This document shows, piece after piece, positions 1,039 through 63,161 of a stretch of 64,000 nt of DNA (positions within the stretch are counted from its first letter, which is position 1; each line of letters begins with the position of its first letter). Under the pieces are notes generated by a model. The model had not been told where the DNA came from and did not search any database. It saw only the letters and a program-made list of their open reading frames with translations. The DNA lies in the NCBI GenBank assembly GCA_949752735.1, contig OX457036.1, positions 1,034,016 to 1,098,015 on the forward strand. The letters are read 5' to 3'. Origin of the DNA: Lumbricus terrestris (lineage: Eukaryota > Annelida > Clitellata > Crassiclitellata > Lumbricidae). The position numbers and the translations under genes were made by a program.

Positions 1039-1045
1039 CATCGGT

Positions 1046-26008: not shown

Positions 26009-26039
<31 letters not shown>

Positions 26040-29600: not shown

Positions 29601-29632
<32 letters not shown>

Positions 29633-31681: not shown

Positions 31682-31734
31682 GGTCGATGGAGACATAATA
31701 TATATGGAAGACGAAGGCGACGGACTTGACTTAC

Positions 31735-32132: not shown

Positions 32133-32291
32133 GTGCTTTAAGACCATGAGGTGATCGATGAGAAAGACGCATTCGCTCTGGAACAATTCCCAGACTGCCT
32201 CGCGCCTCTTCCTTTCCGTTTCCGTTATGTTGACCAGCGTGACGTCATCGGTGGCGTTGTCGTTCGTAACAAGATCACTCCAGTGACCACT
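32133..32291 (-). CDS. RhoGEF exon, start of the DH domain (CR1)
   Basis: 53 codons between an acceptor TTTGCTAG and a donor GTTAGT. The second half, ETERKRREAVWELFQSECVF followed by LIDHLMVLKH, is the first helix of a Dbl-homology domain (pattern R.E..WELF.SE..YL..L..L). Phase 0 at both ends. The exon sits only 302 bases from the next one. Confidence 0.9.
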
Positions 32292-32921: not shown

Positions 32922-32961
32922 CAGAAATTTTGGTCGGCAAAGAGTTGGAAAATTTCGTCGG
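32922..32961. repeat. 40-bp direct repeat, left copy, flanking the 2209-bp array
   Basis: Starts CAGAAATTTTGGTCGG and ends AATTTCGTCGG. An identical 40-mer lies at 38967-39006, directly after the array. Confidence 0.95.
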
Positions 32962-35900: not shown

Positions 35901-38900
35901 AGAATTCCATTGTGTGGATATGATTGTAGATAGCTCTCCAAAGTGTCTGGTTGTAGATAGCTCTCCAAAATGTCTGGTTGGTTGTAGATAGCTCTCCAAA
36001 ATGTCTGGTTGTAGATAGCTCTCCAAGGTGTCTGGTTGTCGATGTATCAGTTGTAGTTATATCAATTGTAGTTATATCAGTTGTAGTCCAAACCGTGCGA
36101 TTTTCATAATACATGACGATAATTGCAGAAACGTTAATATCAGTTGTAGTTCAAACCGTGCGATTTTCATAATACATGACGATAATTGCAGAAACGTTAA
36201 TATAATTGTACAAATATACCCGACGTGGGCTCTCAAAAGTGTCTGGTTGTAGATGTATCTGGTTGTAGATGTATCAGGTCACCCTCCTCCTTTTATTCCA
36301 GGCTTGGGACTGGCTCGACCAGATGTTGGGTTCGAGGCGGAGTTGCCTTGGTTAAGGTCAAAAGACTGTCATATTGGGATTTGGTGACCTGATTGGTAAT
36401 AGAGTCAATAATCGGCGTGCAAAAACGTCCAATTTCACAACACATGACGATAATTGAAGTACAAACCGTCCATTGGCGTGCAAAAACGTCCAAAGGCGTG
36501 CAAAAACGTACGATAATTGATGACGATAATTGCAGAAACGTTAATATATTTACACAATACATGATAGGCGTAGATTTCCCTTGTGTGGATAATTGCAGAA
36601 ACTTGCAGTCCAAACCGTGCGATTTCCATTGTGTGGATAATTGCAGAAACTTAGTCCATAATACATGACGATAATTGCAGAAACGTTAATATATTTACAC
36701 AAATATACGCGATTTCAATAATATATGACGATAATTGCAGGAAAGTTAATATATCTACACAAATATACGCGACGTGGGCTCTCGTAAGGAGCTGATTTTA
36801 AATTTTAAGCTTAACGGACGTTGTGACGTCATCTAATGGCGGAAAAAGGGAAACAAATACAGTGTCCTCTAGCGAATAAATCAGCAGTTATACGAAATAA
36901 TTGACAATAAGACAGTTATACGAAATTAAGCAGTTAATGGCAGTTATACGAAATTAGTTAATGGCAGTTGTCCGGAATTAAGGCAGTTATACGAAATTAA
37001 GGCAGTTATACGAAATTAAGGCAGTTATACGAAATTAAGGCAGTTATACGAAATTAAGGCAATGGCAGTTATATGAAATTAAGGCAGTTATACGAAATTA
37101 ATTATACAAGTTAAAACTTCCACGATATTTACATCAGTTAATGAAAAAATTAGATAATAAGGCAGTTAATTATACTAAGGTCGTTTTATGAAATTACTTA
37201 TACAAGTTAAAACTTTAGTTAAGCAGATCCCATTGGGGATTACACAATAATTTTACGTTAATTAATTATTTGTATCAGTTAAAGAGATCCCATTGGGGAT
37301 TTGACAATAATTTATAAGAGGTAGGCAGGGTCCAACCGAGATCGGGATAGAAGATCAGCAAGGCGCTGGCTCAGGTTAGTATTGAAATGAGAAATGCACT
37401 GGCACAAGCTGTCTCCCCCCCAAAAATCAACAGTAAGATACCTGACCACCCTATCTTTTTGTTTCTAAATTTTTATTTATAAATTTTTAATGGGGTTAGG
37501 GTTAGTTTAAGGGTTGGGGTCAGTATTAAAATTAAGGTTAGGGTTAGTTTTAGGGTTAGGGTTAGTATTAAAATTTTGGTTAGGGTTAGTTTTAGGGTTA
37601 GGGTTAGTATTAAAATTTTTTAGAAGGGCCTAAGGTCTATGGAAAAGTTAAGGTTAGGGTTAGTTGTAGGGTTAGGCTCAGTATTAAAATCTATATATCA
37701 ATTTAATTTAATAAAATAAGTACACAATACAGAAACATACTAGCATAACTCTTCTAAGTTATAGAATTGACCGGTTGTAGAATTTACTGGTTTTGAAATT
37801 AACTGGTTGTAGAATTAACTGGTTGTAGAGCTTCTTGATTGTAGAATTCACTGGTTGTAGAATTTACTGGTTGTAGAATTCACTGGTTGTAGAATTTACT
37901 GGTTGTAGAATTTACTGGTTGTAGAATTTACTGGTTTTGAAATTAACTGGTTGTAGAATTAACTGGTTGTAGAGCTTCTTAATTGTAGAATTCACTGGTT
38001 GTAGAATTTACTGGTTGTAGAATTTACTGATTGTAGAATTTACTGGTTGTAGAATTTACTGGTTGTAGAATTTACTGGTTGTAGATTTCCATTGTGTGGA
38101 TATGATTGTAGAATTCCATTGTGTGGATATGATTGTAGATAGCTCTCCAAAGTGTCTGGTTGTAGATAGCTCTCCAAAATGTCTGGTTGGTTGTAGATAG
38201 CTCTCCAAAATGTCTGGTTGTAGATAGCTCTCCAAGGTGTCTGGTTGTCGATGTATCAGTTGTAGTTATATCAATTGTAGTTATATCAGTTGTAGTCCAA
38301 ACCGTGCGATTTTCATAATACATGACGATAATTGCAGAAACGTTAATATCAGTTGTAGTTCAAACCGTGCGATTTTCATAATACATGACGATAATTGCAG
38401 AAACGTTAATATAATTGTACAAATATACCCGACGTGGGCTCTCAAAAGTGTCTGGTTGTAGATGTATCTGGTTGTAGATGTATCAGGTCACCCTCCTCCT
38501 TTTATTCCAGGCTTGGGACTGGCTCGACCAGATGTTGGGTTCGAGGCGGAGTTGCCTTGGTTAAGGTCAAAAGACTGTCATATTGGGATTTGGTGACCTG
38601 ATTGGTAATAGAGTCAATAATCGGCGTGCAAAAACGTCCAATTTCACAACACATGACGATAATTGAAGTACAAACCGTCCATTGGCGTGCAAAAACGTCC
38701 AAAGGCGTGCAAAAACGTACGATAATTGATGACGATAATTGCAGAAACGTTAATATATTTACACAATACATGATAGGCGTAGATTTCCCTTGTGTGGATA
38801 ATTGCAGAAACTTGCAGTCCAAACCGTGCGATTTCCATTGTGTGGATAATTGCAGAAACTTAGTCCATAATACATGACGATAATTGCAGAAACGTTAATA

Positions 38901-47448: not shown

Positions 47449-47518
47449 TAATTATATTCTATAGGCTACATGTGATGAGTGGTATGACCGAGCTATAATA
47501 GTAGTGTGTTAAGTAAGA

Positions 47519-47785
47519 GTTCTATATCAAAAGGCGGTAAGAGTTCTATATCAGCAATTAAAAAGTCATTAAAAAGCCATTAGTCACGCCCATTAGTCAC
47601 GCCCCTTGATATAGAAAAGCTCATTAATATTCATGACAAATAGTCACGTGACTAATTGGTTCTATATCAAAAGGTAGGTTTGATTCTATATCAGCAATTA
47701 ATAAGTCATTAAAAAAGCCATTAGTGACGTCCCCTGAGATAGAAAACCCTATTAATATTCATGACAAATAGTCACGTGACTAATT
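47519..47785. repeat. Two tandem units of about 140 bp next to the virus-like element
   Basis: Units start GTTCTATATCAAAAGG at 47519 and 47659 and end with CACGTGACTAATT. Each has inverted TATATC/GATATAG pairs and an ATTAATATTCATGACAAATA block. They are outside the inverted repeat I can detect. Confidence 0.8.
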
Positions 47786-47887
47786 AATATTCATGAATGC
47801 AGTGATGTCATATTCGAGAACTTTCTGGACCATTTAGTGCATACTTAGATGAGTAAGCGGTCGTTAATGATGTGACCTCGACTAATT

Positions 47888-47980
47888 GCTTTTCCACCTA
47901 GAAAATCCCTCTTTTTTCTTTCTCAATTTTATCTTTTAATGCGTACAAGTAGGAAGTTTGTTACAGCGTTGGCGTCATCT
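47888..47980. repeat. Left terminal inverted repeat of the virus-like element
   Basis: TTTTCCACCTAGAAAA, then TCAATTTTATCTTTTAATG and GTAGGAAGTTTG, matching the right end in reverse. The best block (47918-47963) agrees at about 9 of 10 positions. Confidence 0.7.
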
Positions 47981-48087
47981 ATTGTGTGTGCATTATTAAA
48001 TGATAATAGCAGGACTTTGTTATGTTTTCATTCAATAGCATGTATAGAAATAACTACAACACTTTTAAAGTTCAAGTAACTTTATTC

Positions 48088-48534
48088 TTATACTTTGGAA
48101 ACGAAATTATAAACCAAATAATCGTTCAATCCAGTATCAAAAGTTAACATGTTCGCTACAGCATTAATATTTCTACCTCTAGCTCTATGCAACGAATACA
48201 AAATACAGTAATGTCCACAAAATTTGCTAACTAAGCTTTGCAATTGCCGATCAGTAAAAATCCACCGTGCACAATGTCTATGTAAAAATGTTCTGAACGG
48301 AGCTTCGGGTGGCGCACCCAGCGAGTCAAAGTATTCCCCATAAGTAGAATTCTCTATGTAAATAACGATCCAATGTTTGCCTGGATTGCCGTACGTATCT
48401 GTATTACACACGAGAATGGATGGCCGATTTCTGTTTATCGTTGAAGGTAAGCGATCGCATGGAAACACGCCCAGAAACATGGGACTACACTTTGCATCTG
48501 CACGTAGTATCGAATATATCGTGTCACTGTCCAT
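48088..48534 (-). CDS. Adenain-type cysteine protease (virion maturation protease)
   Basis: 148 residues, near the size of Polinton and adenovirus proteases. The catalytic set is visible: His54 in GKHWIVIY, Asp70 in EYFDSLG, a Gln in the DRQLQS stretch (97 or 99) for the oxyanion hole, and Cys106 in FCGHYC. The start at 48534 lies one base after the capsid gene's stop codon, so the two genes are consecutive. By analogy with adenovirus and Polintons it would cleave capsid and core proteins during assembly. It is the last gene of the row, next to the left inverted repeat. Confidence 0.88.
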   Translation of the reverse strand: MDSDTIYSILRADAKCSPMFLGVFPCDRLPSTINRNRPSILVCNTDTYGNPGKHWIVIYIENSTYGEYFDSLGAPPEAPFRTFLHRHCARWIFTDRQLQSLVSKFCGHYCILYSLHRARGRNINAVANMLTFDTGLNDYLVYNFVSKV

Positions 48535-48535
48535 T

Positions 48536-49858
48536 TCAGTTGGTATAGTCGAAAATCACGTTTCTGGAGCGGTCGATTTCCAGAATATTTTCAAATTCTG
48601 CGAATGCGATGACGTTTATGGTTCTAGCCAAAGCCTGCCCGAACTTCATATCAACACGAATATTTCCCGGTTTGATGAGGTTAAAGTGACCGCCTTCTGC
48701 GAGGTCTGGAGTTAAGTCGAATGCGTAAAGAGCGTATCCACCGGCAAAGTCCTCTCTCGCTATTTGATTTCCTTCGTCGCGCATCCACTTACCGGTACCA
48801 GTAAACAGCGAAGCGTAAGCATTCACAAACTGATTGTTTGCGAAATTCGTTTCCAAAGGTTTGATCGTTTGCTGTTGACCGTCCAAGTACACTTTTAGTT
48901 GGGTCAGATTCATATGTTTGAAGTTGAATGGATTCTTCGTATAGACTCCGTTAAACGCGTCGTTGTCAACGCAACCGATAACGATACGGGTAGGAATCTG
49001 ACCGGAGAAGAGACTCTCCTGCGACGCATCCAAGTTTCCAGCCGGAACCGTGAAAGTCTTGCAAATGGCTCTTCGAATGGGAAACTTCAAATTACCAACC
49101 TCAAGTGCTTTAGCGTGTGCTAAAAACACCGACGGACTTAGTTTTACCTTTCTAACGTACAACTTGCATTCCAAGATTTTTACTTTATATGCTGCACCCG
49201 CTGTCGCTGACATCAAGCAGAATGGATCCTTGTTTCTTACGAGGCGGATTTTTGTATTAATATCGTTGGGGAGAAACCGTTCTTGGAAGAAGAGATCGCT
49301 GTGAATGCCGCCTATCATATCAACGACGCGCCCTTCGTCGGTCAATGCACTGCGTTTCTTAAAACCGACATTCGCTATATTGTCGTCGTGCGGATTGGCG
49401 TCTTCCAAGTGGGTGGCTGTATCCTTGTAAAAGAGAGCAGAGGTAAGTTGCGAAGCTTTGGCTGAATCACCGTAACTAAGGATGGTCTCCATATAGCTAC
49501 GATACGCATACGTGTTGTTCCAAGAAGTAACGAGCGTGTCATTTAAAGTGATGTCGACTTCCGAAAACAGGCTGTGTAGGAATAGGTTGATAGGACCAAC
49601 ATGATCGCCAGCATCCGTCGGATCGTTATTCGCTCTTATTATAGATGCTCTGACGTATAGCTGAGTATTCGACAAGTCCAAATAATCTTGACCGGCCCCT
49701 GTAATGCTAAATTCGATCGGCGTACCTTGCGAAATGGTGGCTATTGGATTATACTCTACGTACGACCCAGTTTCAATACTGGTCTGCGTGGGAGGCACGG
49801 TAAACAGATCCAATTCGCTCTTTGTACATTCGCAAGATTGTGGATGAACGAACGCCAT
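48536..49858 (-). CDS. Putative major capsid protein (F54H12.2-like, double jelly-roll type)
   Basis: 440 residues beginning MAFVHPQSCECTKSELDLF and VPPTQTSIE. This N-terminus is characteristic of the widespread invertebrate proteins named F54H12.2-like, which sit in Polinton-type elements beside the protease and ATPase. I take it as the capsid subunit from that context and from the beta-rich composition; the fold was not tested. The frame is fully open. The preceding pX-like gene ends only three bases upstream of the start at 49858. Being smaller than classical Polinton capsid proteins (about 600 residues), it may be a distinct subgroup. Confidence 0.75.
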   Translation of the reverse strand: MAFVHPQSCECTKSELDLFTVPPTQTSIETGSYVEYNPIATISQGTPIEFSITGAGQDYLDLSNTQLYVRASIIRANNDPTDAGDHVGPINLFLHSLFSEVDITLNDTLVTSWNNTYAYRSYMETILSYGDSAKASQLTSALFYKDTATHLEDANPHDDNIANVGFKKRSALTDEGRVVDMIGGIHSDLFFQERFLPNDINTKIRLVRNKDPFCLMSATAGAAYKVKILECKLYVRKVKLSPSVFLAHAKALEVGNLKFPIRRAICKTFTVPAGNLDASQESLFSGQIPTRIVIGCVDNDAFNGVYTKNPFNFKHMNLTQLKVYLDGQQQTIKPLETNFANNQFVNAYASLFTGTGKWMRDEGNQIAREDFAGGYALYAFDLTPDLAEGGHFNLIKPGNIRVDMKFGQALARTINVIAFAEFENILEIDRSRNVIFDYTN

Positions 49859-49861
49859 TTT

Positions 49862-50266
49862 TCAAACTTTGCCGAAAATATCTTCCTTGGTTCTCTTGTT
49901 AATTCTTTTCAACGATCTTTTACGTCTCTTCCTGCCGCCGCCGCTTTGCACATTGTCATTTTTGGGAGATGTAAACGCTTTTATACCTTCTGGAACGCGC
50001 CGTTTGGCCGAGTCTATCAACTGACCGCCGTCCGCGACGTCGTTGGCAATCTGCAGACCGGTTCTCAAAACCTGTTTGCCAATTGCCTTAGCGCCAGTCT
50101 GAATAAGCGGCCAGGCACTTCTAAACAGACCGCCAAGAAAGCTGCCCACGCCATGCCCACGTTGCATGCGCGCACCTTGAAAAACTGGCATGCCATTGCC
50201 ACTCTGTTGTACATAGTAGTCCTCGTATGCCAAACGACTTGCATCGCAGCAAAATTGTTTTTTCAT
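49862..50266 (-). CDS. pX/pVI-like basic core protein
   Basis: 134 residues. The middle contains MQRGHGVGSFLGGLFRSAWP, a Gly-rich amphipathic motif shared by small core or membrane-active proteins of adenovirus-like elements, and an N-terminal GNGMPVFQG that resembles a protease-cleaved leader. The C-terminus is strongly basic (GGGRKRRKRSLKRINKRTK), suited to DNA binding. Its start codon overlaps the stop codon of the upstream penton-like gene (ATG/TAA overlap at 50263-50266), so the two are probably translated from one message or by reinitiation. Confidence 0.72.
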   Translation of the reverse strand: MKKQFCCDASRLAYEDYYVQQSGNGMPVFQGARMQRGHGVGSFLGGLFRSAWPLIQTGAKAIGKQVLRTGLQIANDVADGGQLIDSAKRRVPEGIKAFTSPKNDNVQSGGGRKRRKRSLKRINKRTKEDIFGKV

Positions 50267-51087
50267 TGCAGAAGATAAGGTATCTTACGATGTCTAAAGT
50301 GTAGTGTCACAATTGCCTTCCCGTATTCGAATGGGATAGGACTTCCAGTTTCGCCCCTTATATCCACCTCGATGGAGTCGAAAGTCTTCTGTTGCAACGG
50401 AATGTAAACGGGCTTTTCGTAAGTCGTACGAACGCTATCGCCACTTTTCTCAGACACGTTTACAATTCTGAGCAATGGCGCCTTCGTATCTCCCACAGGG
50501 ACTTGTTCCAACACATTGCAATATACGTACAGAGAGCAAAACCCACGATTTACATCGCAAGCGTTGTCGCCCACGAAATCAACAATGTAGTCATCCTCAT
50601 CATCGTAATTGAGAATTGGATTTTGACGTGCATCAACGCCCAGCATTGAACATATGGTTGGTGAAAACTGAATATTTGCACCTTTGTTTATATCTCCCTT
50701 GAGTCGCTTCGATATAGGATCGTATTTGAATTTTGGGAATGTAGTCAATTCCATTTCATCCACAACAAGACTTATAAATTTGTTTATGGAATCGATAAGA
50801 TCTTGGGGTGTTTCATAGTATCCGGTTGGCAGTCGTGTAGTTCTATGCAGCGATCCTGGTAGTATGTCACCCGTTTCAGAAAACTTGACATGCATATACG
50901 AGATTCTACCTTCATTTCTTTCTAAATTGCTCCAACTATGAGGGTACTGTAATTCAACTAGCCCGACTTCCCAGTCACCGGTTAGAGATATTGGATTTTC
51001 CAATCTCGTGGTAAAATGTGTTATGGTATTGTTTGGATAAAACAGCATGGAACTATTGCTGGGGAGCGTAAGGTAAAATTGAGCCAT
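50263..51087 (-). CDS. Penton-like / minor virion protein, intact paralogue
   Basis: 274 residues starting MAQFYLTLPSNSSMLFYPNN, with a following GDWEVGLVELQYPHSW. This N-terminal pattern is common in invertebrate Polinton-type elements; the protein is beta-rich and of minor-capsid size, but its exact role is not established. The C-terminus has QQKTFDSIEVDIRG and PFEYGKAIVTLHFRH. A second, diverged and broken copy lies immediately upstream (51091-51984); the intergenic distance is three bases. Confidence 0.65.
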   Translation of the reverse strand: MAQFYLTLPSNSSMLFYPNNTITHFTTRLENPISLTGDWEVGLVELQYPHSWSNLERNEGRISYMHVKFSETGDILPGSLHRTTRLPTGYYETPQDLIDSINKFISLVVDEMELTTFPKFKYDPISKRLKGDINKGANIQFSPTICSMLGVDARQNPILNYDDEDDYIVDFVGDNACDVNRGFCSLYVYCNVLEQVPVGDTKAPLLRIVNVSEKSGDSVRTTYEKPVYIPLQQKTFDSIEVDIRGETGSPIPFEYGKAIVTLHFRHRKIPYLLQ

Positions 51088-51090
51088 ATT

Positions 51091-51984
51091 TTATTGAATG
51101 AGATGCGGTTTCTTGCACTGTCTGAAATGAAGTAATACGAACGACTTCCCATACTCGAATGGTATTGCATTCCCAGTGTCGCCCCTAATATCTATTTCTA
51201 TTGAATCGAAGCTTTTCTGCTGAAGGGGTACTTAGACTGCATTCTCGTACATGATATGCACATTGTCGCCATTTTTGCCTTCAATGTGAACTATTCGAAG
51301 TAATGGGGCTGTCGTATCGCCAACAGGTACATGTGACAGAATGTTGCAATAAACGTGTATGCTTGAGAATGCTGGATTTATATCTCCAATATACTCAGAT
51401 TCCCATTCCACATCGGGTACCTCATCCCATACTTTATTAAACTCTTCGTAATGCTCTTTATAATATTCTTCATTCTCTTCAGCGTCATATTTACCAAAAT
51501 TGAGGTTATAAATAGGATTCTGTCTTTCGTCTATGCCCAAAATAAAGCATAATGCTGTGGAGAATCTTACTCCCGCTCCTAGATTTATTTCACCTTTGAG
51601 TGTTTTCGTTATTGTGTCATATTTAAAATGTGAATATTTATCAAGTTTATGTTCGACCGCAAACTCCTGTATATTCGTATTTACAGCATATACAATATCA
51701 TGCATATTTTCGTAATACCCAGTAGGTAATTGTATTGTCTTTTGATCGCCTGGCCAATGCAAACCGTCAGAATACTTTTTCGATTCTTGCCAATAAATAA
51801 ATTCACAATCGTCGGATGTTATATTGTTCCACGTGTGCGGATAATGCATTTCAATCAAGCCAACTTCCCAATCGCCCGATAACGAAATGCCGTTTTCCAA
51901 TTTTGTTGTAAAGTGTGCCACAGTATTGCTTGGATAATACTTCATGGAGCTGTTGCTTGGTAGCGCTAGATAAAAGTGAGCCAT
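51091..51984 (-). pseudogene. Penton-like protein, second paralogue broken by one nonsense codon
   Basis: The frame opens with MAHFYLALPSNSSMKYYPSN and runs 250 codons to a TAA at 51234-51232. After the stop, the same frame continues to match the C-terminus of the intact copy (QQKSFDSIEIDIRGD, PFEYGKSF) down to a second stop at 51091. Over shared parts the two paralogues look roughly half identical, and this copy has an acidic insertion (YDAEENEEYYKEHYEEF). One base change therefore cost it its last 47 residues; truncated function or read-through cannot be excluded. Confidence 0.8.
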
Positions 51985-52023
51985 ACTCGCATGTAGACTA
52001 TTACAGAATGCGCATTGTCAGTG

Positions 52024-53073
52024 CTAGACATCGAATATATCCTGAGTCCAAGAGTTAAATTTGTCGTCGTAACCTTTCCACTTGACATAATATTCGGTCT
52101 TTCCACGGCGCTTACGCGTTTTTAAGACCTTTTCGATACCGTACACGTCATCATCTTTCAAAATTCTTTGCAATTCGACTTCGTAGAATTTACCCTTTAG
52201 CGTCTCGTCTTTTAAATCGGCTAATTCGTAAGTTACTGGATCGGAAGGTATGCGAGCTATGATCTTAAAAATCTCTTCGGACCAAGAGGGAAGGTAGCCC
52301 TTTTTGAATGCGATTCTAGCCTTTGCAATTCTCACTTTATCACCTACTGCATATTTCCACTTTGCTGGACTTTTCTTTTGACCGTACAAACGGCTTCTAA
52401 TACTATTTTCGTCTTCCTTTGTCACTTGACTAGGTATCATACCTATACTTCTATGATATGTATTGTTGTACGAATTCATAAGATCTTGCAAAACATCAAC
52501 ATATCGATACGTATTCTTATACGTAAAGTACTTCCACATTTTCGTCTTAAGCGTGCGATTGAATCTTTCTACTACAGAGGCCTTTATATCGCTATTTTCA
52601 GATGTGTAAAAGCGAATGGAGTTCTTGCGCAGCATGGATTGAAAACTTCTATTAAGGAACTCTGTTCCCTTGTCGGTCTGTAAATGAGCGGGCTGTCTAT
52701 CTACCAAAATGGACGAAAAGGCTGCAGTCAAATCTGATCCCGACTTTGACTTGAGCGGAACTGCCCAAGCATATTTAGAAAAGACGTCTATACACGTTAA
52801 AATATATTTATTTTTATCATTATGTTTCGACAATGCAGAAAGATCGGCCAAGTCAGCTTGCCATAGATCGTCAATTCCTACTGTAAAAGTCTGTCTACGC
52901 CTAAAGTTCAACCTGACAGGTTTATGCAACGTGTAAGCGTCCTGTTTCGAAAGCCAATGTTTAACATCCTTAGTTTTAAATTTATCGTCAATATGTCTTT
53001 GAAATGAAGAAACGCCGCCGAAGCTAGCCGGCTGTTTAGGATCGAAGTAAGACTCCATCAGTAGGGTAACCAA
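52024..53073 (-). CDS. Retroviral-type integrase with C-terminal chromodomain
   Basis: 349 residues. The N-terminal part SYFDPKQPASFGGVSSFQRH and SKQDAYTLHKPV is typical of Polinton integrases. The catalytic triad is Asp74 (WQADL), Asp134 (LQTDKGTEF) and Glu169 (VVERFNRTLK), with 34 residues between the last two. The C-terminal 40 residues (YGIEKVLKTRKRRGKTEYYV then KWKGYDDKFNSW) form a chromodomain, which in other elements directs integration to modified histones. It joins element ends to host DNA. The stop is followed by about 40 bases before the broken penton-like gene; the start overlaps the upstream gene by 16 bases. A longer start is not available. Confidence 0.93.
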   Translation of the reverse strand: MVTLLMESYFDPKQPASFGGVSSFQRHIDDKFKTKDVKHWLSKQDAYTLHKPVRLNFRRRQTFTVGIDDLWQADLADLSALSKHNDKNKYILTCIDVFSKYAWAVPLKSKSGSDLTAAFSSILVDRQPAHLQTDKGTEFLNRSFQSMLRKNSIRFYTSENSDIKASVVERFNRTLKTKMWKYFTYKNTYRYVDVLQDLMNSYNNTYHRSIGMIPSQVTKEDENSIRSRLYGQKKSPAKWKYAVGDKVRIAKARIAFKKGYLPSWSEEIFKIIARIPSDPVTYELADLKDETLKGKFYEVELQRILKDDDVYGIEKVLKTRKRRGKTEYYVKWKGYDDKFNSWTQDIFDV

Positions 53074-53714
53074 CTCGCATTCAGATGATGTTGTTGATGT
53101 TGTTCTCCGTGTATACTTTTCGATGCAAATGACTGACTTTCATCGATCGAACCGTTAATATATTTCCAACGATCTTGATTGCCGATCAACTCACGAGGAA
53201 TATTGGAATCTTTCAACGCGTCGGCCAGTTGCATCCATCCGGTAGGCGGTGAAGCTGTTGTACGTTTTCTCAGCAGGTCGTTTACCAAGTCCACCACGTG
53301 CGTCTTCGGAACCGTCGCGTTCTTCAGCACAAGTTCGCCTTTAGTAGACCACGAAACGTCCGGGTTGCTCTTCATGTGAGTCAAAAGTCTAGCAGCCTGC
53401 GTTTTCCATTTCTTTGGCACAGTTTCCAAGACTTGAGCTTCTATACTATTGGTTTTGACCGGCTGCGCCTTCTCAGCATCTGTCACTTCATCTTCTTTCT
53501 TTTCGAATTTGGTAAGTACAGTAGGTTTATCAATGTTCAAATAGCGACTCAGACTGTTGGAATAGAGTTTGGCTTTATCGTCATCGGCAATATCGCGATG
53601 CAGAATGTCGTACATCTGCGTATCCAATTTGGACAAAGTCTTGTCCAACATGGTTTCCTTCCATTTTTCAATCTGTCTGGGTTCAACCAAGACCATCTTC
53701 TTCGTATGTTCCAT
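53058..53714 (-). CDS. Conserved Polinton-type protein of unknown function
   Basis: 218 residues. The N-terminus KKMVLVEPRQIEKWKETMLD and the block DTQMYDILHRD are, from memory, shared by proteins next to the integrase in related invertebrate elements. The central part (EAQVLETVPKKWKTQAARLL) is helical; the C-terminus is rich in Ser, His and Gln. No catalytic motif is visible. It overlaps the integrase start by 16 bases, suggesting coupled expression. Confidence 0.65.
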   Translation of the reverse strand: MEHTKKMVLVEPRQIEKWKETMLDKTLSKLDTQMYDILHRDIADDDKAKLYSNSLSRYLNIDKPTVLTKFEKKEDEVTDAEKAQPVKTNSIEAQVLETVPKKWKTQAARLLTHMKSNPDVSWSTKGELVLKNATVPKTHVVDLVNDLLRKRTTASPPTGWMQLADALKDSNIPRELIGNQDRWKYINGSIDESQSFASKSIHGEQHQQHHLNASWLPY

Positions 53715-53715
53715 G

Positions 53716-54045
53716 CTACAGTTTATTACTTAGCAAGGTACCCAGAAAGGAAAGCACAGGGGTAAGTAATGCACCTATGAAACCACCAGTCTGTACTATA
53801 CGTTTCTTAATCTTTACACGAGTTTTCTTGGAAGCCAATTTTCTTAACTTGTGTTTGAAACGACCAAGTCTCTTCTTCTGAGCTTTTTCCAAAGGAACAA
53901 CTCTTTTTAAAACGTTGAGTGCACACTCACAGAGACAGTAAAGTAGAGAGGTGTTGCAATCTTTCAAAATATGTTTCCTCACTTTGGGTGACGACTCTTT
54001 AAGCAATCTCAGTTTCTCAAATTTCTCCTTCAGTGGAGCCGTCAT
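53716..54045 (-). CDS. Small basic protein with hydrophobic C-terminus
   Basis: About 109 residues from the ATG at 54045 (MTAPLKEKFEKLRLLKE). The open frame extends upstream to 54147, but that part overlaps the ATPase gene and looks like its shadow. The protein has CNTSLLYCLCECALNVLKR, many Lys/Arg, and a hydrophobic Gly-rich end (QTGGFIGALLTPVLSFLGTL). Similar small proteins recur in Polinton-type elements; a membrane-active or DNA-condensing virion component is my inference. It ends one base before the next gene starts. Confidence 0.68.
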   Translation of the reverse strand: MTAPLKEKFEKLRLLKESSPKVRKHILKDCNTSLLYCLCECALNVLKRVVPLEKAQKKRLGRFKHKLRKLASKKTRVKIKKRIVQTGGFIGALLTPVLSFLGTLLSNKL

Positions 54046-54086
54046 TTTCAACGAATGAACGTTCGAGCGATTACACGACCTTATAT

Positions 54087-54806
54087 TCACTTTCTTACGT
54101 ATACAAAATGCGTCTCGCCAGGGAAAATGTTCGTTCTTAATCTGCAACGTTCATCCGTCTCCGGTTTGAGATCAACCAACAGATATCCGAAAGGTGCCAT
54201 TGTCGCATCTCCGAACGCCTCTATCATGAAATTCGACTTGCCGGGGAACATCTGCCTTGCCAGGTTTGCTATCTGAGTCGAATCTCTCACGTTTTTGAAA
54301 AGAACAAAGTAATGCGCGTTCAAACTGATGGTTCTCGTATGTTTGCTGCTGTAGAATAGATTCTGCGTCAGGTACAGTATCGAAACGTTCCTGTGGTGGC
54401 TGATCTTTGTAAATAATTTGGTAACGCGGTCATCAGTCTCGCTCATAAGGTCGTCCAATATCAGAAGCGTTTTCTGCTTACCATCGAAAATATTCAAGTC
54501 GGGTAATCCTTCGTGAAATTGAATCTGCGAATATTTGTCGAAAATTTCTTGGTATATTCCGTAACACCAGATAATTTTTTCTATCTGCGGTTTGACCATA
54601 TAATGTAAATGATCTATAAATCGTAGCGTGAATTGTGTTTTTCCACATCCAGAAGGTCCGCTCACTATAGCCGAAAACGGGTGTTGCCAAGTTGGATCCA
54701 TAACGAAAAGTGAGTCCTTGAAATGTTGTAAGAAACTTTTATACAAGATATATTCTGACAAAGCCCAATATGCGTTCTTTGCATTGAGGACATTCTGTAG
54801 CTTCAT
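54087..54806 (-). CDS. A32/FtsK-type genome-packaging ATPase
   Basis: 239 residues in the open frame. Walker A is GPSGCGKT (50-57), Walker B LLILDDL (114-120), followed by a sensor-like SILYLTQNLF. Such ATPases pump DNA into preformed capsids of Polinton-, adenovirus-like and large DNA viruses. The first 35 residues overlap the upstream RING gene; Met36 (54701) starts just after that gene ends and 14 residues before Walker A, so translation may really begin there. Confidence 0.88.
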   Translation of the reverse strand: MKLQNVLNAKNAYWALSEYILYKSFLQHFKDSLFVMDPTWQHPFSAIVSGPSGCGKTQFTLRFIDHLHYMVKPQIEKIIWCYGIYQEIFDKYSQIQFHEGLPDLNIFDGKQKTLLILDDLMSETDDRVTKLFTKISHHRNVSILYLTQNLFYSSKHTRTISLNAHYFVLFKNVRDSTQIANLARQMFPGKSNFMIEAFGDATMAPFGYLLVDLKPETDERCRLRTNIFPGETHFVYVRK

Positions 54807-55047
54807 CTGTACATGGGTCGCACATATTTACGTGTCTGCATGGAAGTAGCAGTGTTTCCACTTGCTTATTTTTACATACCACGCAAGTAGCTGCTTTTTT
54901 GAGTTTTTCATTCTCCGCTTTCAATCTCATGAGACGATATTTCGTAGATTTCTCATCCTCCGTGCGCTCATCGATTCCACAAATGTCGCATTCGCACTTG
55001 TAGTTGCCAAACACATCCATTTCACATTCAACATTCGACGGACACAT
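54739..55047 (-). CDS. RING-finger protein, IAP-type RING
   Basis: 102 residues. The C-terminal C3HC4 RING has Cys55, Cys58, Cys70, His72, Cys76, Cys79, Cys86 and Cys89, in the compact IAP-type spacing, ending FVRIYLV. Before it are a Cys-rich N-terminus (CECDICG) and a charged helix (RLKAENEKLKK). IAP-type RINGs act as ubiquitin ligases and often block host cell death in insect viruses; here only the RING, no BIR domain, is present. It is the first gene after the right inverted repeat. Confidence 0.85.
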   Translation of the reverse strand: MCPSNVECEMDVFGNYKCECDICGIDERTEDEKSTKYRLMRLKAENEKLKKAATCVVCKNKQVETLLLPCRHVNMCDPCTDEATECPQCKERILGFVRIYLV

Positions 55048-55140
55048 ATTTGCACAAAACGTGTATCACTCCCAAAGAATGGTTAACAAATAATTCTTAA
55101 AGATACAAGTATCATCTTTTAATAAAGTAATTGAAACAAG

Positions 55141-55233
55141 TGGCGCCATCTAGCAAACTTCATACTTCTACACATTAAAAGATAAAATTGAAAAATTCTT
55201 GGGTTTTTTTTTTTTTTTCTGGGTGGAAAATTT
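55141..55233. repeat. Right terminal inverted repeat of the virus-like element
   Basis: CATTAAAAGATAAAATTGA at 55172-55190 and CTGGGTGGAAAAT further out match the left end in reverse. A poly-T run of about 15 interrupts the outer part. Confidence 0.7.
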
Positions 55234-55345
55234 TGGGTTTTTTCTAGTGGAAAATCTTGGGTTTTTTCTGGGTGGAAAATTTTGGGTTTTTTCTAGTGGA
55301 AAATCTTGGGTTTTTTCTGGGTGGAAAACCTTGGAGTTTTCTGGT
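55198..55345. repeat. Tandem TTGGGTTTTTTCT…GGAAAA repeat
   Basis: Four or five units alternating between TTTCTGGGTGGAAAATTTTG and TTTCTAGTGGAAAATCTTG. It overlaps and extends the right inverted repeat, so the outer end of the element may lie here. Confidence 0.8.
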
Positions 55346-55939
55346 TTTTTATTTTGGCCTATCCTGCTCCGTTTTAGTTTTTGAAATTCGACTGCGTCGT
55401 AGAGAGATTCTTATCGCAGCCAATAAAACCATTTATATGGCGTCGCTTGAGTGATCTCCACTCGCTGAATACTACAATGCGAGCGACCAAGTATAATAGC
55501 CCGAGGGCAGCTGGTTCGCCTTTGTGAGGTGTGTGGTTACGACTGACGTTGAATCGGTGCTCTGTGCCCGATTCAAAATTGCGCGAGTTCCCAGCGCTTC
55601 TGTGTACTAAAAGATCGCATTTGAATTGGCAAATCAATTGTGAATTGTGCTTTAACCCTTTCGTGTCCGAATTATTTCTAGAGCAGCAAAAAAATATTTG
55701 AAGTGTTTTTTGAAGAGATATGACCAACATGTTGTGCCATATAAAATATTTAGTAATTAGGCAATGCCTAATTAAAATTAATTAGTGTTGCCATTTGGCA
55801 ACAATGGGAATGCATGGAAAGGTTTCCATATGGCAACAACGATAGAGTAACATGTAAAATAGCATAAGAAACCTAAAAACGACTGTATTTTGCATGTCTA
55901 TTATTTCACATGACATTTTATGACATGCAATGCTAGTCT

Positions 55940-56460
55940 AAGTATAGCAGTTCTTTTTTAGACATGGGGCACAGATTGACATCACACTTGTCATACGTGG
56001 CATGAATGATGGATTTCTCGCAATTTCTACAGTGCCCCTTGTCTGATCTATAAAAAAACAGGTGCCCGATGCTGTCCAAGCTCATTTCAGTGAGTGGAGC
56101 CAGCTCCCCATCCCACACCAGGCCACCCCACCCAACCCAACTCCCCAACCCACCCAGCTTCATCCCAGTCCACTCCACCTGACCCATCCGGGCCACCCAC
56201 CCCACCCCAACCCTCACCACCCCTCCCTCACCCGGGCCACCCACCCCACTCTATCCACCCCACCCAGTCATCACCCTACCCACCGCCATCCCACCATTCC
56301 CCACCCCACCCCTTTTGGGTAGTAGCATTTGTAAAGAATCCCGCCTTTGACACAGGCAGCATTCAAAACCAACCAGAATATCCTGTGGTACAACTGTACA
56401 CTGAGGTCAACAGTGTCGACTCAACACCTACATGTATATGGGCAACTAGTTGGGGTGCCC
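55940..56460 (-). pseudogene. piggyBac transposase remnants
   Basis: Minus-strand 56088-55950 carries DKGHCRNCEKSIIHATYDKC then DVNLCPMSKKELLYL, the C-terminal cysteine-rich domain of piggyBac transposases. Further upstream (56460-56340) YHRIFWLVLNAACVKGGILY resembles the block 'W...ifw...d.a.vNayILY' that precedes it. Between them lies a CCCACC simple repeat of about 230 bases. The catalytic aspartates are not recognisable; the copy is dead. Confidence 0.55.
56100..56320. repeat. CCCACC-rich tract inside the piggyBac
   Basis: CACCCCACCCAACCC units; a second tract of the same kind lies at 56500-56750. Confidence 0.9.
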
Positions 56461-57537
56461 GGGAAATATAGGATTTGCCCCGCTCCCAGCCAATACCTTA
56501 CTTGTCCACCCTCACTGCCAGCTCCCCAACCGCCTGCTCCCCAACCCACCCAGCTCCACCCCACCCCACCCCACCTGACCCCACCCCAGACCACCCCACC
56601 CAACCCAACCCACCCCTCCCCACCCCTTCCCACCCCTCCCTCACCACTCTCACCCGGACTACCCACCCAACTCCATCCATCCCACCCTCACCCTACCCTA
56701 CCCCACCCACCGCCACCCCACCATTCCCCACCAAAACCCACCCCACCTCTTTCAGTCTAGCCAGTGGTACATCACCACCTTCAGACTCAGTTTCTGCATG
56801 AGAGCATCGGCATCTAGAATGTATCAGCTGATACCAGCACCTGCCATAGCAATGAAACTCTCCCGTCTAAATCGGCATCCATCGTGCAGTAAAGGCATTC
56901 ATCCCATATCACCAAATATGAGTAAACCACATTCTAAGCCTTTTTCTGTGAGGATTTCACACATCCATGAATCAACCTCATTATTTTATGTTCAAACACA
57001 CACACTTCAGATGTTTCTATATTGTGCCAAATCAGACTACATTATGCTACACATCCATAGCTTCCCATTGTTGCCAAATGGCAACCGATATAAAACTAAC
57101 CGATTTTGCAAATTTACATAAAACAGTGAATTTATAGTAAGTCAGAGTTGAATACTGATCTATGCCTACTCTTAAAATATTTTTTACTCTTTCTTAGCAT
57201 TTATCAGTAAAAAGAAATTAAATCAAAAAAATTGACCTTTGAAAATTGGAAATCACGCTGACTTCAAGATCATAATAGTAGAACAAAATTGCCACAAATA
57301 TACTTCCTAAGGCAATAATTACCTTTAGCCATCATAGATGCAGCTAATGCTGCTTCAAATTCTGTTTTAAAACATTCCTTAAGAAAAATAATAACTTTAA
57401 TTAGCTGTGTTTGCCATATGGAAACAAGGGACACGAAAGGGTTAAGTAAAAAAGTCCTATCTACAGGATTCTGCCGTGTGCCAGTGCAAATTGTAAATAA
57501 CTGGGGAGGGTTTCACTTGTATGCTGTGTTTGAAAGG

Positions 57538-58277: not shown

Positions 58278-59261
58278 GACCAATAGGGGGAATACAATAG
58301 GAAACGCTGATAGACCAGGCTTGGAATCTCAAAATGGCACTGCTAGAAGCAAATCATGTAACAATTTGCTAACCGGTGTTTCTAGACTAATTTGACCCTG
58401 CTGAAAACGAAAATCGCTGTTAGCAAGCTGGATTTTTGGCCGTTCAATGGGAAAACAAGATGGCGGACAAAATGGCGGTCAGTTGCTTCAAATGGCTATA
58501 AGTAAAGTATTGTATGTGACAGGAACACGATTTTAGACTCTAAATTAAGATTATAGAGTGCAAGAAATACAATGGAACCAAATACACATACGTAGCACTG
58601 CAAGAAAATCAAAATGGCGGACAAAATGGCGGCTAGAATCTTAAAATGGCTGTAAGTGAAGTTATGTATGCAGTGGAATCATGATTTCAGGGTCTAAATC
58701 AACATTTTCTGGGTCAAGGAATGCAATGGAAGCAAGGTAACATATGTGGCATTGCACGGAAACCAAGATGGCGGACAAAATGGCGGACAAAATCTTAAAA
58801 TGGCTATAAGTGAAGTTATGTATGCAATGGAATCATGATTTCAGGGTCTAAATCAACATTTTCGGGGTCAAGGAATGCAATGGAAGCAAGGTAACATATG
58901 TGGCATTGCACGGAAACCAAGATGGCGGACAAAATGGCGGACAAAATCTTAAAATGGCTATAAGTGAAGTTATGTATGCAATGGAATCATGATTTCAGGG
59001 TCTAAATCAACATTTTCGGGGTCAAGGAATGCAATGGAAGCAAGGTAACATATGTGGCATTGTACGGAAACCATGATGGCGGACAAAATGGCGGACAAAA
59101 TCTTAAAATGGTCATAAATGAAGACATATATGCAACTAAATCATGATTTCAGGGTCTAAATCAACATTTTCAAGGTCAAGGCATGTGATGAAACCAATGT
59201 GACATATATAGCACTGCCTGGACACCAAAATGTCGGCCAAAATGGCGGCCAGATTATCGAA

Positions 59262-60790
59262 TTGGCTGTTAGTGGATTTCTGTATCTAATGAATAAATCA
59301 ATTCAGAATGTAAATGAGAATTTTCGGAATTAAGGAAAGTGATGAAATTAAAAGCACGGAATATATTATGTGACACTGCCAGAAAACCAAAAAACCAAAG
59401 GGTGGACAAAAACTTCAACTGGCTATGAGTGATGTCTTGAACATATGCGATGGAGACTTGATTTCAGTCTGGACTAGTAATTTCCAGGTCATATGTTTTC
59501 CAACAAAATCACATGCAGTGTTATGCAGTGAAATTGTCATACCTATGGTCCTATAGTGAATTTTTTTAGTAGTCTATGACTGCACTGCAGTTTAACTATT
59601 GCTGGCTTTATGTATATACAGGATGCATGCTTCAATGTTTCATAACTTGATCTATCAATAGTTTCAACTTTTCATGACTTGACGGATATAGGGTAAGCCT
59701 ACCGTAGAGTCAATTCAGGCCTTGCTACTGTCAATGCAATTGCACCTGAGTGCACATGACAAGATCGCACTTTGATAGCACCAGAGCCTGATGCTACGTT
59801 TGTCAACTTCACATGATTTGCTGTAGACAAACTCTATAATGTGGCTTTGGCGCACACTGGTAAAGATTACTTTCTTCCACCACACTCCATCCGATGAAGA
59901 TGAGGATGATATCTGAACATCAATATCTAGAAAATGGGCCTTTCCAAACTTACAGAGCTCTTGGTAATGAGCTCATAATGGAATGTTCCAAATGTAGAAA
60001 GTAAGTGGGAACTTTCAAATAGTTTATTCATGCATTGTTTCAGCTGATTCCTGCTAAATATGTCAAATCACATCCAGTTGTAGCATGAAGGACACTCTAT
60101 TCTTCATCTTCATAGTTACGTGATTTGGATGAGCTTCCGTTCCGCTGATGTTCCTGACATCACCAAAACACCGTTAAATATAAAGCAAACACATATGACC
60201 CGGCAGTGGACAACACCTTATCTTTTTTCACGTAACCACCAGCAACCGCTCTAGTCCATATCTCCAAATGTGGCTGTTGAGAGCTGAATAGACAGAAATG
60301 TTCAAAGCTAGATCAGTCTTTCTTTCAAGCATACCAAGAACATACAGCCAATTTTCTGACAACGAAGTATTTCAGTACTCCACACAGTGACAGAGTTTTG
60401 GTGGTAATTTTCTGTACGATTTCACTTTTTAAAAGCAATGTCCACTATATCTTTCGAAGGCAATAATTATTAACCCTCTTGTAGCCAATCGAAAGTAGGC
60501 TACCTGTACACAGGTATCCACTGTATCTGTCAGGTCACCAAATGTCTTCGCGTTTGGAGGTTCCCTATAATTGCTTGAACCATTGCTTGTCCATCAATAA
60601 TTTGTCTGCAACAGGTTGGATGAACTGCGTCGCGACTTATGGGCATATCACAATATTTGGTCATGTCTCATACAATATGCGGGATGTCTTGCATTGGCCC
60701 CCTTTCCCGCAGCGGATTGCCGGCAGGGTCTGTGTGTTGCTTAGGTAGTGCCTTGATGGACTAGCCACATTATGTCTGAAAGAACTCTTG
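59262..60790. other. Middle of the fold-back element, non-coding as far as seen
   Basis: Unique sequence; a 68-codon open frame at 60542-60748 has no domain. Confidence 0.4.
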
Positions 60791-60794
60791 TTTT

Positions 60795-61085
60795 TCAACA
60801 TCGGATGTCCAGCGTCGATCTACTCTTCGGTTGGCGGACCAAGCTGAGCTGGTTCACTCGCGGTCTGCTATTCGACATCACCTTTCATTCTCTGTAGCTG
60901 GTACTAAAATCTGGAATGGGAATGGCCAACCCCTTTTCACAGCGCTTATTGCATGCCCATGGGTCACTCCACTCTGTTTCGTAAGAATCTAAAAACTGTC
61001 CTATTTAGCCTAGTTGTAGTTAAGTCGGGAGCGATTCCGGACAGCCCACCTTGAAGAGGCACTACGTAAAATATTGTAAATAAAC
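60795..61085 (+). mobile_element. 3' fragment of a CR1/L2-type LINE inside the fold-back element
   Basis: Translated pieces HHLSFSVAGTKIWN and TPLCFVRI match the C-terminal 'FS.aG..lWN.LP … FK..LKT.LF' of these LINEs, with a stop before the end. It closes with GAAGAGGCACTACGTAAAAT and a TAAATAAA tail. Confidence 0.6.
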
Positions 61086-62446
61086 AAATGCTATGACTCT
61101 GCTATAGAAATGCGGACTGAACAAGTTACTTTTGCAGAGAGAATCCAATCCCATTGGTTTTGAGACAAGTCCATGGCACAATCGTTTTTCCAGATCCATG
61201 GACAGTCAGCTTGATACGATCGAATAAGGCACTGCATGATATACCAATCTTCCTTTATAATTTTTTCAGTGTTCTTTTGAAGAACACTCCTTGGTTTAAG
61301 ACTTGCTGAAGGCATTGCGATAATTTGAATGATCATATCTGGTCAAATAAGGGAGCATTGTAGATAAATTCAATTGCGCAGGTTTCAGATACCATCTTGC
61401 AAAGACCTGGCAAAAATTTGAATCAAGTTCCCATTGCATGCATGACTTCACTAACATCCATTTTGAAATTCTTGCCGCCATTTTGTTCGCCATTTTGGTC
61501 TCCAGGCAGTGCTATATATGTCACATTCGTTTCATCACATGCCTTGGCCTCGAAAATGTTGATTTAAACCCTGAAATCATGATTTAGTTGCATATATGTC
61601 TTCATTTATGACCATTTTAAGATTTTGTCCGCCGTTTTGTCCGCCATCTTGGTTTCCGTACAATGCCACATATGTTACCTTGCTTCCATTGCATTCCTTG
61701 ACCCCGAAAATGTTGATTTAGACCCTGAAATCATGATTCCATTGCATACATAACTTCACTTATAGCCATTTTAAGATTTTGTCCGCCATCTTGGTTTCCG
61801 TGCAATGCCACATATGTTACCTTGCTTCCATTGCATTCCTTGACCCCGAAAATGTTGATTTAGACCCTGAAATCATGATTCCACTGCATACATAACTTCA
61901 CTTACAGCCATTTTAAGATTCTAGCCGCCATTTTGTCCGCCATTTTGATTTTCTTGCAGTGCTACATATGTGTATTTGGTTCCATTGTATTCCTTGCACC
62001 CTATAATCTTAATTTAGAGTCTAAAATCGTGTGTCTGTCACATACAATACTTTACCTATAGCCATTTGAAGCAACTGACCGCCATTTTGTCCGCCATCTT
62101 GTTTTCCCATTGAACGGCCAAAAATCCAGCTTGCTAACAGCGATTTTCGTTTTCAGCAGGGTCAATTTAGTCTAGAAACACCGGTTAGCAAATTGTTACA
62201 TGATTTGCTTCTAGCAGTGATTTCTAGAGCCCTTTTAGAATTCCAAGCCTTGTCTATGACAGACAGACAGACACACATGTAGGCATGCAAAGGGTATCAA
62301 TTATGGCTTCTTTTTGAAGCACTGGTCATTGTTAGCACACAGCGACGAATGTATTTGAATTTTCATCATATTCTAACGAAGTAAGCTGTTGGTTGCTATC
62401 AGTGACCATTGACAGTCCTATGTCTGCTCTACACAACTAAGAAACT

Positions 62447-62516
62447 CTGGCAGTGCCAACCCAAAGGGCTTATAAAGAAGGAGGGTGACACTATTGGGCT
62501 TTGTTATAATACAGTG
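62447..62516 (+). repeat. Dispersed repeat family A, divergent copy
   Basis: CTGGCAGTGCCAACCCAAAG, then AAAGAAGGAGGGTGACACTA and TTGGGCTTTGTTATAATACA. Confidence 0.55.
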
Positions 62517-62920
62517 CTTTCTGCTATCGGCAGATGCAGCCATGCATTTAGGCGATGAATGAGTCGTTGAACGCTGAATGAACCGATGGCGCATTTAATT
62601 ATAGTTTGACGCCTTGCGTAGATGGGGTATAGTGAAAGAATACGAAATGCCTGTGGATTTTTCTGGAAAGCATGACGTCGCTTCCAGAAGCCTGCCGTTA
62701 TTAGTGGTATCTTAATAGCAGGCGTACACAGACTGACAGACAGACGCACGACCAGAGAGAGAGGCACGCGTACAGAATACAATGACGGGTTCTATTGTCG
62801 CATAGACAAGATGCCCGAAGGCTGTTGTCAATAATGATTATCTAAATCACCTAGCTATGCATGCTGACAAAGACATAGGTAGCCGCTTATGCAGGATGAC
62901 AACGTTAATGCTTCGTCGCT
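62517..62920. other. No gene seen
   Basis: Unique sequence with a short GACAGACAGACG run near 62735. Confidence 0.35.
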
Positions 62921-63111
62921 TGTTGCCAGTCCCAATCGTGAATAAAAGGAGGGTGTGTTTCTTATGGTCCCTGTTACAGTGCAGCGATGAATGCACTAAC
63001 AAACAAACAAAACTTTGTCTTTTAAGCAATGCGAGTAATCGCCTATTATACGTTGTAAGAACGGCTGGAATGAGACGTGGAAGCTTGAATGGATTGGTGT
63101 GCGTGTATAAT

Positions 63112-63161
<50 letters not shown>
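62921..63161 (+). repeat. Family A element with AC microsatellite tail
   Basis: Core TTGCCAGTCCCAATCGTGAA, TAAAAGGAGGGTGTG, then a body with GTAAGAACGGCTGGAATGAG and GGTGTGCGTGTATAATGA and a (CA)n at 63113-63161. This layout parallels 57538-58275. Confidence 0.65.

What the first reader, a model, noticed from the sequence alone, without database searches (positions are those of the whole stretch)
47888..55233. Compact, PolB-less Polinton/adintovirus-like element with nearly intact genes
Seen: ten tightly packed minus-strand genes between inverted repeats, including packaging ATPase, adenain protease, capsid-type protein, pX-like protein, two penton-like proteins and a chromodomain integrase. 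Known: classical Polintons and adintoviruses are 12-25 kb and carry a protein-primed DNA polymerase B. Inference: this is a 7.3-kb lineage with virion and integration genes but no replicase, either parasitising another replicator or replicating by host enzymes.
Basis: partly seen in the sequence, partly recalled or inferred. Interest (0 to 1): 0.88.

Follow-up and report, generated by a model that had tools for sequence, protein, structure and literature searches.

The report
Two-part split Maverick mobile element
A virus-like transposon in an animal genome carries its shell and integration genes but no DNA polymerase, and a separate mobile element in the same genome carries a matching polymerase behind related end repeats, so the two look like halves of one virus-like element.

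Summary
The ten-gene array is real and has no PolB. It is the core of a Maverick/adintovirus-type element. Two sister copies read to both ends are about 9.4 kb, with (AGT)2//(ACT)2 ends and 6-bp target duplications. Models give a double-jelly-roll capsid and an adenovirus/mavirus-type penton. Of 96 capsid copies scored, 64 are 97-100% identical; coding changes between copies show purifying selection. None of 20 further copies read carries PolB. The genome also holds open adintovirus-type PolB genes on separate elements with Maverick ends; none of five read carries the compact element's genes. One PolB group (L036 type) shares end-repeat segments with the capsid elements. A 35-nt motif from that repeat has 132 places, none in the reversed control; of 100 listed, 26 lie near L036-type PolB, 21 near compact capsids, none near both, none near 47 other PolB genes. 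I read this as a split Maverick: one element supplies virion and integrase, the other the replicase. Trans replication, integration and packaging are inferred. Against it, no motif pair encloses a capsid, and one-piece relatives probably exist elsewhere. I found no printed report in the library searched.

The parts
47494..47499 (.). presumed target-site duplication (left side); right partner not established
47500..47930 (.). left terminal arm, begins AGTAGT
   Evidence: L013, L021 and L025 end at the same point before unrelated flanks and L020 ends alike
47554..47588 (+). 35-nt terminal-repeat motif shared with L036-type PolB elements
48088..48534 (-). adenain-type maturation protease, 148 aa
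   Evidence: PF00770 E 4.4e-05; dN/dS 0.20
48536..49858 (-). double-jelly-roll major capsid protein, 440 aa
   Evidence: model and fold matches; dN/dS 0.042
49862..50266 (-). 134-aa protein of unknown function
   Evidence: no Pfam or PHROGs family; dN/dS 0.19
50263..51087 (-). penton protein 1, 274 aa
   Evidence: model matches mavirus penton and adenovirus penton base
51232..51984 (-). penton protein 2 (paralogue, 49% identical), stops early in this copy
52024..53058 (-). rve integrase with C-terminal chromodomain, 344 aa
   Evidence: PF00665 3e-12, PF00385 1.3e-08
53058..53714 (-). 218-aa protein of unknown function
   Evidence: no Pfam family above cut-off; one weak PHROGs match of unknown function
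53716..54045 (-).
54087..54806 (-). packaging-type ATPase, 239 aa
   Evidence: PF04665 7.1e-06
54739..55047 (-). RING-finger protein, 102 aa
   Evidence: PF13920 2e-11
55151..55195 (.). right subterminal inverted repeat
55193..55655 (.). right arm, first piece, with 24/25-nt tandem repeats
   Evidence: matches L021 right arm at 99.8%; repeats
55656..57441 (.). insertion into the right arm
   Evidence: absent from L021
57442..58315 (.). right arm, second piece
   Evidence: matches L021
58316..62256 (.). second insertion, an inverted-repeat element with 154-nt spaced repeats
62257..63161 (.). right arm, third piece; true right end not established
   Evidence: 99.9% to L021; no partner of the left end to 64000 plus 3 kb

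Best explanation
The element is one half of a split Maverick/adintovirus system. The 'virion-integrase' element (about 9.4 kb) encodes the capsid, two pentons, protease, packaging ATPase and a chromodomain integrase. A separate 'polymerase' element (L036 type) encodes an adintovirus-type PolB. Shown: the complementary gene sets, Maverick ends on both kinds, end-repeat segments shared by one PolB group and the compact elements, and open, constrained coding sequence. Inferred: PolB replicates both linear DNAs from the (AGT)2-headed repeats by protein priming, the capsid proteins package both, and the integrase inserts both with 6-bp duplications.
For: Gene dichotomy: at tblastn E<=1e-3 the window and 20 further compact loci hold compact genes and no PolB, while five PolB elements hold none of the ten. 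In the lists, 86 of 96 capsids have an integrase within 25 kb (median spacing 3201), but 0 of 96 capsids and 0 of 117 integrases lie within 25 kb of 78 PolB genes, and 0 of 55 L036-type PolB lie within 100 kb of a listed capsid or integrase (1.0 and 1.2 expected). Ends: both kinds carry AGTAGT//ACTACT with exact 6-bp duplications: compact L012, L015; PolB L032, L034, L035. This is the commonest end motif, and the duplication, printed for vertebrate Mavericks (PMC8097293, section 7 and passages). Shared repeat: the L036 arm matches 18 of 22 compact arms at >=45 bits, 11 in its terminal segment and 7 in a subterminal one, against 26.8 bits in 68.2 kb of background and 34.0 bits as the best of 200 shuffles. 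Motif: 132 places, 0 in the control; of 100 listed, within 12 kb, 26 have L036-type PolB (16 of 55 genes), 21 a capsid (18 of 96), 0 both, 0 another PolB (0 of 47). Specificity: a 33-nt motif from the other PolB group has 94 places, 0 near a capsid. Constraint: dN/dS 0.04-0.26 over nine compact genes and 0.09-0.23 in the other PolB group.
Against: No transcript, particle, episome or trans-replication was seen. None of the 23 inverted motif pairs in the 100 listed places encloses a compact capsid: the motif is seen at one end of compact copies only, and in L012, read at both ends, the two arms score 61.0 and 30.8 bits against L036. The lists are the best-scoring 55-117 of 898-3343 candidates, so an unlisted one-piece element is not excluded. 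The L036 element was read only in part: its right end was seen, its left end is inferred from a motif pair 10.5 kb apart. Complete duplications were read only for the other PolB group, whose repeats are not shared (0 of 22 arms). Arms and ends were mostly located with the hexamer as guide; alignments between copies stop within 8 nt of it in 19 of 22 compact arms by my count. Relatives elsewhere probably carry both genes on one contig. 53 of 100 listed motif places lie near neither gene. Only one L036-type PolB was read, so its dN/dS is unknown.
Confidence: 0.62

Rival explanations
1. Both kinds are complementary internal-deletion derivatives of an ordinary one-piece adintovirus/Maverick that still circulates or sits unlisted in the genome and supplies everything in trans.
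For: Four contig lengths of 5 kb or more (18791, 21071, 32263, 32451) are shared exactly by the capsid and PolB relatives listed, against 0.11 expected, so one-piece relatives probably exist; PolB P0243 on the 32451 contig is 77% identical to L036 PolB. One gene of another DJR family lies 16.7 kb from a PolB gene. Motif pairs do not enclose compact capsids.
Against: No capsid-PolB pair in the lists and no inverted motif pair holding both; many open near-identical copies of each kind; all nine compact genes tested are under constraint, which simple cheaters would be expected to lose.
Confidence: 0.25
2. The compact element replicates without any PolB, by host enzymes; the repeat shared with PolB elements reflects descent only.
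For: The element encodes its own integrase and no polymerase.
Against: Ends keep the doubled AGT triplet in 21 of 22 arms (arms located partly by that hexamer) as in PolB-bearing Mavericks; repeat segments are kept in common with one PolB group only.
Confidence: 0.08
3. Two unrelated element families share a common host repeat by chance or by nested insertion.
For: 53 of 100 listed motif places lie near neither gene.
Against: The motif lies in inverted pairs around 10 PolB genes and next to the AGTAGT terminus in compact copies; 0 in the control.
Confidence: 0.05

Closest known systems
Vertebrate Mavericks/Polintons (PMC8097293, section 7 and passages seen)
   Same: 5'-(AGT)2//(ACT)2-3' ends, 6-bp target duplications, terminal inverted repeats; integrase, ATPase, protease, major and minor capsid genes
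   Different: those are 12.7-24.6 kb with protein-primed PolB in the same element; here PolB is on another element and the virion element is about 9.4 kb
Polintons without capsid genes (PMC4028283, passages seen)
   Same: that paper reports nine Polintons lacking capsid, protease and ATPase genes together, a precedent for a replicase-side element
   Different: whether those keep an integrase was not read; no partner element with the missing genes is described in the passages seen
Adintoviruses (PMC11071296, section 16 and passages seen)
   Same: chromodomain rve integrase, adenovirus-like virion genes; the L035 PolB here is 53% and 51% identical over 501 aa to records named Parasteatoda and Corynactis adintovirus (44% and 39% over the long alignments)
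   Different: adintoviruses are defined there by PolB and hexon; the paper also mentions genomes with adenovirus-class virion proteins lacking recognisable PolB and integrase, a different combination
Bidna-like Vesanto virus of Drosophila (PMC8363768, passages seen)
   Same: PolB on its own segments; many segments share similarity in terminal inverted repeats
   Different: a multi-segment single-stranded DNA virus, not integrated elements with target duplications
Mavirus/Sputnik virophages
   Same: capsid and penton folds
   Different: mavirus encodes its own polymerase; known virophages parasitise giant viruses (PMC11071308, section 11 and abstract seen)
Protein R9XLG5 of Cotesia sesamiae bracovirus
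   Same: best match of the capsid model in the viral fold library, 37% identical
   Different: that it comes from an integrated Maverick is recalled, not tested

Membership tests
Maverick/Polinton | (AGT)2//(ACT)2-type ends | tested here: met
   21 of 22 compact arms and 4 of 4 PolB arms begin AGTAGT; most arms were located with this hexamer as guide, and 19 of 22 compact arms agree with alignment ends within 8 nt by my count
Maverick/Polinton | 6-bp target-site duplication | tested here: met
   compact L012, L015 and PolB L032, L034, L035, all exact (L034 and L035 found by a search for such pairs); not shown for the window copy or L036
Maverick/Polinton | rve integrase, packaging ATPase, adenain protease, DJR capsid, penton | tested here: met
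Maverick/Polinton | protein-primed PolB in the same element | tested here: not met
   absent from the window and 20 of 20 further compact loci read
Adintovirus | PolB with N-terminal OTU-like domain in the genome | tested here: not met
   no PolB in the compact element; OTU domain of the separate PolB not tested
Adintovirus | rve integrase with C-terminal chromodomain | tested here: met
Adintovirus | hexon recognisable by BLASTp to adintovirus hexons | not tested
   no adintovirus hexon set was held
Segmented/multipartite virus | segments with complementary genes | tested here: met
   within the loci read
Segmented/multipartite virus | shared terminal sequences | tested here: met
   in compact copies seen at one end only or weaker at the second
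Segmented/multipartite virus | segments packaged and transmitted as a set | not testable with these tools
   needs particles or episomal DNA

The most novel reading that the evidence does not exclude
A bipartite endogenous Maverick/adintovirus: two obligately complementary mobile elements, one with virion and integrase genes and one with the replicase, kept together by shared terminal repeat sequences, multiplying together in an animal germ line; possibly with further repeat-sharing segments and a second, parallel split system with its own repeat.
Probability: 0.52. Interest if true: 0.92.

Novelty: new variant of a known kind. Interest (0 to 1): 0.82.

Why it matters
Mavericks are treated as self-synthesising one-piece elements. 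A split pair with shared terminal repeats would be a multipartite state in the Maverick/adenovirus lineage, would suggest how segmented DNA viruses such as bidna-like viruses could arise by module splitting, and would mean that annotation by PolB plus capsid on one element misses such systems. It also makes the open question of whether Mavericks form particles more testable: both element types should be found in the same preparations.

Tried and rejected
Taking 47888-55233 as the element: rejected when copies matched well beyond both ends. PolB hidden in the right arm: not found in the window to 64000 or in L012's right arm (no stop-to-stop frame over 91 aa). Shared repeat between compact arms and the other PolB arms (L032, L034, L035, L037): weak, 34.8 bits, reached by 1 of 100 shuffles, and 0 of 22 arms at 45 bits; not used. 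Adenain family search of the genome rang nowhere and is uninformative. IMG/VR scan with the capsid: no relative. PHROGs added little. tblastn of PolB in phage records: none; PolB against PDB sequences: no polymerase match, best E 0.064. The full L035 PolB did not list DNA_pol_B_2 in one Pfam scan, although a 643-aa piece of L032 did (E 1.2e-17) and L035's own gene scored 88.8 bits in the genome search; unexplained. L037's left end was not found and L021's right arm could not be followed to its end. The window's right end stays open: the candidate at 63259 has no inverted partner and is one of two 12-mers with at most one mismatch in the 64 kb.

dN/dS values are pooled over non-independent pairs and exclude frames with gaps or breaks (sequences used, window included: protease 14, capsid 11, 134-aa 18, penton 1 16, integrase 16, 218-aa 8, 109-aa 18, ATPase 13, RING 17); penton 2 was not computed because the window frame is short. 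The shuffles kept at least 97% of the letters, not always all.

Listings cover open-licence papers only. Kapitonov and Jurka 2006 and Starrett 2021 were not read.
Full report

Copies and ends. The genome is 1.056 Gb in 331 contigs. Of 898 first-look capsid candidates 96 were scored: 64 at 97-100% identity (one partial), 17 at 92-93%, 1 at 89%, 14 at 85-86%; 88 of 96 have no internal stop. I read 20 of these copies. Copies continue outward to a terminus reading AGTAGT inward; in the window this is 47500. Two copies were read to both ends: L015 with TATCTA and L012 with CATGCT duplicated exactly, giving 9419 and 9386 bp by my arithmetic. PMC8097293 (section 7 and passages seen) gives (AGT)2//(ACT)2 as the commonest end and 6-bp duplications for vertebrate Mavericks, with sizes of 12,723-24,620 bp. 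L012's 1.8-kb right arm has no frame over 91 aa. The window copy's right arm is interrupted twice and its right end is not established.

Constraint. Pooled over pairs of gap-free intact frames, dN/dS is 0.042 capsid, 0.095 ATPase, 0.109 integrase, 0.110 penton 1, 0.138 (218-aa), 0.189 (134-aa), 0.191 (109-aa), 0.203 protease and 0.263 RING, with 8 to 18 sequences per gene. Copies with gapped or broken frames were left out, and pairs are not independent. Five of the 20 copies read have all ten frames open, by my reading; in others one or more frames are broken or cut. So the PolB-less element has multiplied with its virion genes in use.

The other half. PolB (PF03175) matches at 78 places (91 scored of 957 candidates), 74 of them without an internal stop. 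Five PolB elements were read, wholly or in part. Three are complete, of 8047 (my arithmetic), 7921 and 7995 bp, with AGTAGT//ACTACT, long inverted repeats and exact duplications ATCAGA, CCTATG and GACCTA. PolB is their only frame over 200 aa, with KxxxNSxYG-type and DTDS motifs in L035 (that these are PolB motifs is recalled); L037 also has a PC4-family protein. The PolB is adintovirus-like: records named Parasteatoda and Corynactis adintovirus PolB are 53% and 51% identical over 501 aa. A tblastn of the ten compact proteins and two PolBs over all loci splits cleanly: 20 compact loci and the window have no PolB; the five PolB elements have none of the ten. In the lists, 86 of 96 capsids have an integrase within 25 kb, while 0 capsids and 0 of 117 integrases have a PolB within 25 kb (0.35 and 0.43 expected if unlinked).

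The shared end. PolB copy L036 is 62% identical to the other four. Its terminal arm is homologous to those of compact elements: best 64.9 bits against a maximum of 34.0 in 200 shuffles; 18 of 22 compact arms reach 45 bits, 11 in the terminal segment (the window among them) and 7 in a subterminal one, while 68.2 kb of background gives at most 26.8, and the four other PolB arms reach 45 bits with 0 of 22. A 35-nt pattern from this repeat, with up to two mismatches, occurs 132 times in the genome and 0 times read backwards. The first 100 places were listed. Within 12 kb, 26 have an L036-type PolB (16 of 55 genes), 21 a compact capsid (18 of 96), none both, none one of the 47 other PolB genes, and 53 neither; chance would give about 0.1-0.2 places per class. 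Of 23 inverted pairs, ten enclose a PolB, at 9.2-13.3 kb; none encloses a capsid, with or without PolB; 13 enclose neither. So in compact copies the motif was seen at one end only; L012's two arms score 61.0 and 30.8 bits against L036. As a specificity control, a 33-nt pattern from the other PolB group has 94 places, 22 near 13 of the 47 other PolB genes, and 0 near a compact capsid or a gene of the second DJR family. L036-type PolB was scored at 55 places (of 1493 candidates): 24 at 97-100%, 2 at 93-94%, 17 at 86-88%, 9 at 82-83%, plus 3 shorter matches at 87-99% (one of the 24 starts at residue 23); none lies within 100 kb of a listed capsid or integrase. Both genes thus show a young tier and older tiers.

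Mechanism. Shown: complementary gene sets, Maverick ends on both kinds, repeat segments shared by one PolB group and the compact elements, open and constrained genes. Inferred: PolB initiates on the doubled AGT triplet (adenovirus has a comparable terminal repeat used for jumping back; recalled) and copies both DNAs; both are packaged in the DJR/penton shell by the ATPase; the chromodomain integrase inserts both. No integrase was found in the other PolB elements either, so their exact duplications suggest an integrase in trans. A further hint: L015's two ends agree at 98% over 150 nt, and L012's in two blocks at 96.5% and 94.6% (only 69.5% in a gapless-length comparison), while between copies the terminal 60 nt fall into eight clusters although cores are mostly 94-99% identical. 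This is compatible with end homogenisation during replication but rests on two elements.

Origin. The capsid and PolB relatives listed share four exact contig lengths of 5 kb or more (18791, 21071, 32263, 32451; 0.11 expected; over all lengths 6 against 0.8), so one-piece relatives probably exist; I could not read those contigs. On the 32451 contig the capsid is 86% identical to the window's and the PolB 77% identical to L036's (63% to L035's), so L036 PolB looks like the historical partner of this capsid. The split is probably derived.

Limits. Nothing here shows activity today. Novelty rests on the searches.

Noticed in passing
G000, 94 places of a 33-nt repeat: The other PolB group has its own repeat; 9 of 39 inverted pairs enclose a listed PolB and 30 pairs of 0.35-10.9 kb enclose none of the listed PolB, capsid or second-family DJR genes: possibly another partner element or non-autonomous copies.
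   Followed up: partly
G000: A second DJR-like family (PF21738) has at least 126 places, mostly without internal stops, none within 25 kb of the listed window-type capsids or integrases and one within 25 kb of a listed PolB.
   Followed up: partly
G000: 13 inverted pairs of the shared motif (1.0-16.7 kb) enclose neither PolB nor capsid from the lists: further segments, unlisted copies or deletion derivatives.
   Followed up: no
L014, L019, L022, L026 right termini: The terminal arm holds a long palindrome around GTGACGTCAC whose two halves differ between copies yet stay complementary (read by eye).
   Followed up: no
L009-L028 arms: Terminal 60 nt of 22 arms fall into eight unlike clusters although cores are mostly 94-99% identical; several arms carry minisatellite-like tandem repeats.
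   Followed up: partly
L037:6930-7436: A PC4-family (p15) protein gene next to PolB, E 1.4e-20, a possible single-strand DNA-binding partner.
   Followed up: no
window 58338-62219: Inverted-repeat element with 154-nt spaced tandem repeats in its arms, inserted in the right arm of this copy.
   Followed up: no
window 26000-38000: Long stretch of positive GC skew, 0.3-0.42 in 9 of 12 one-kb bins, cause unknown.
   Followed up: no
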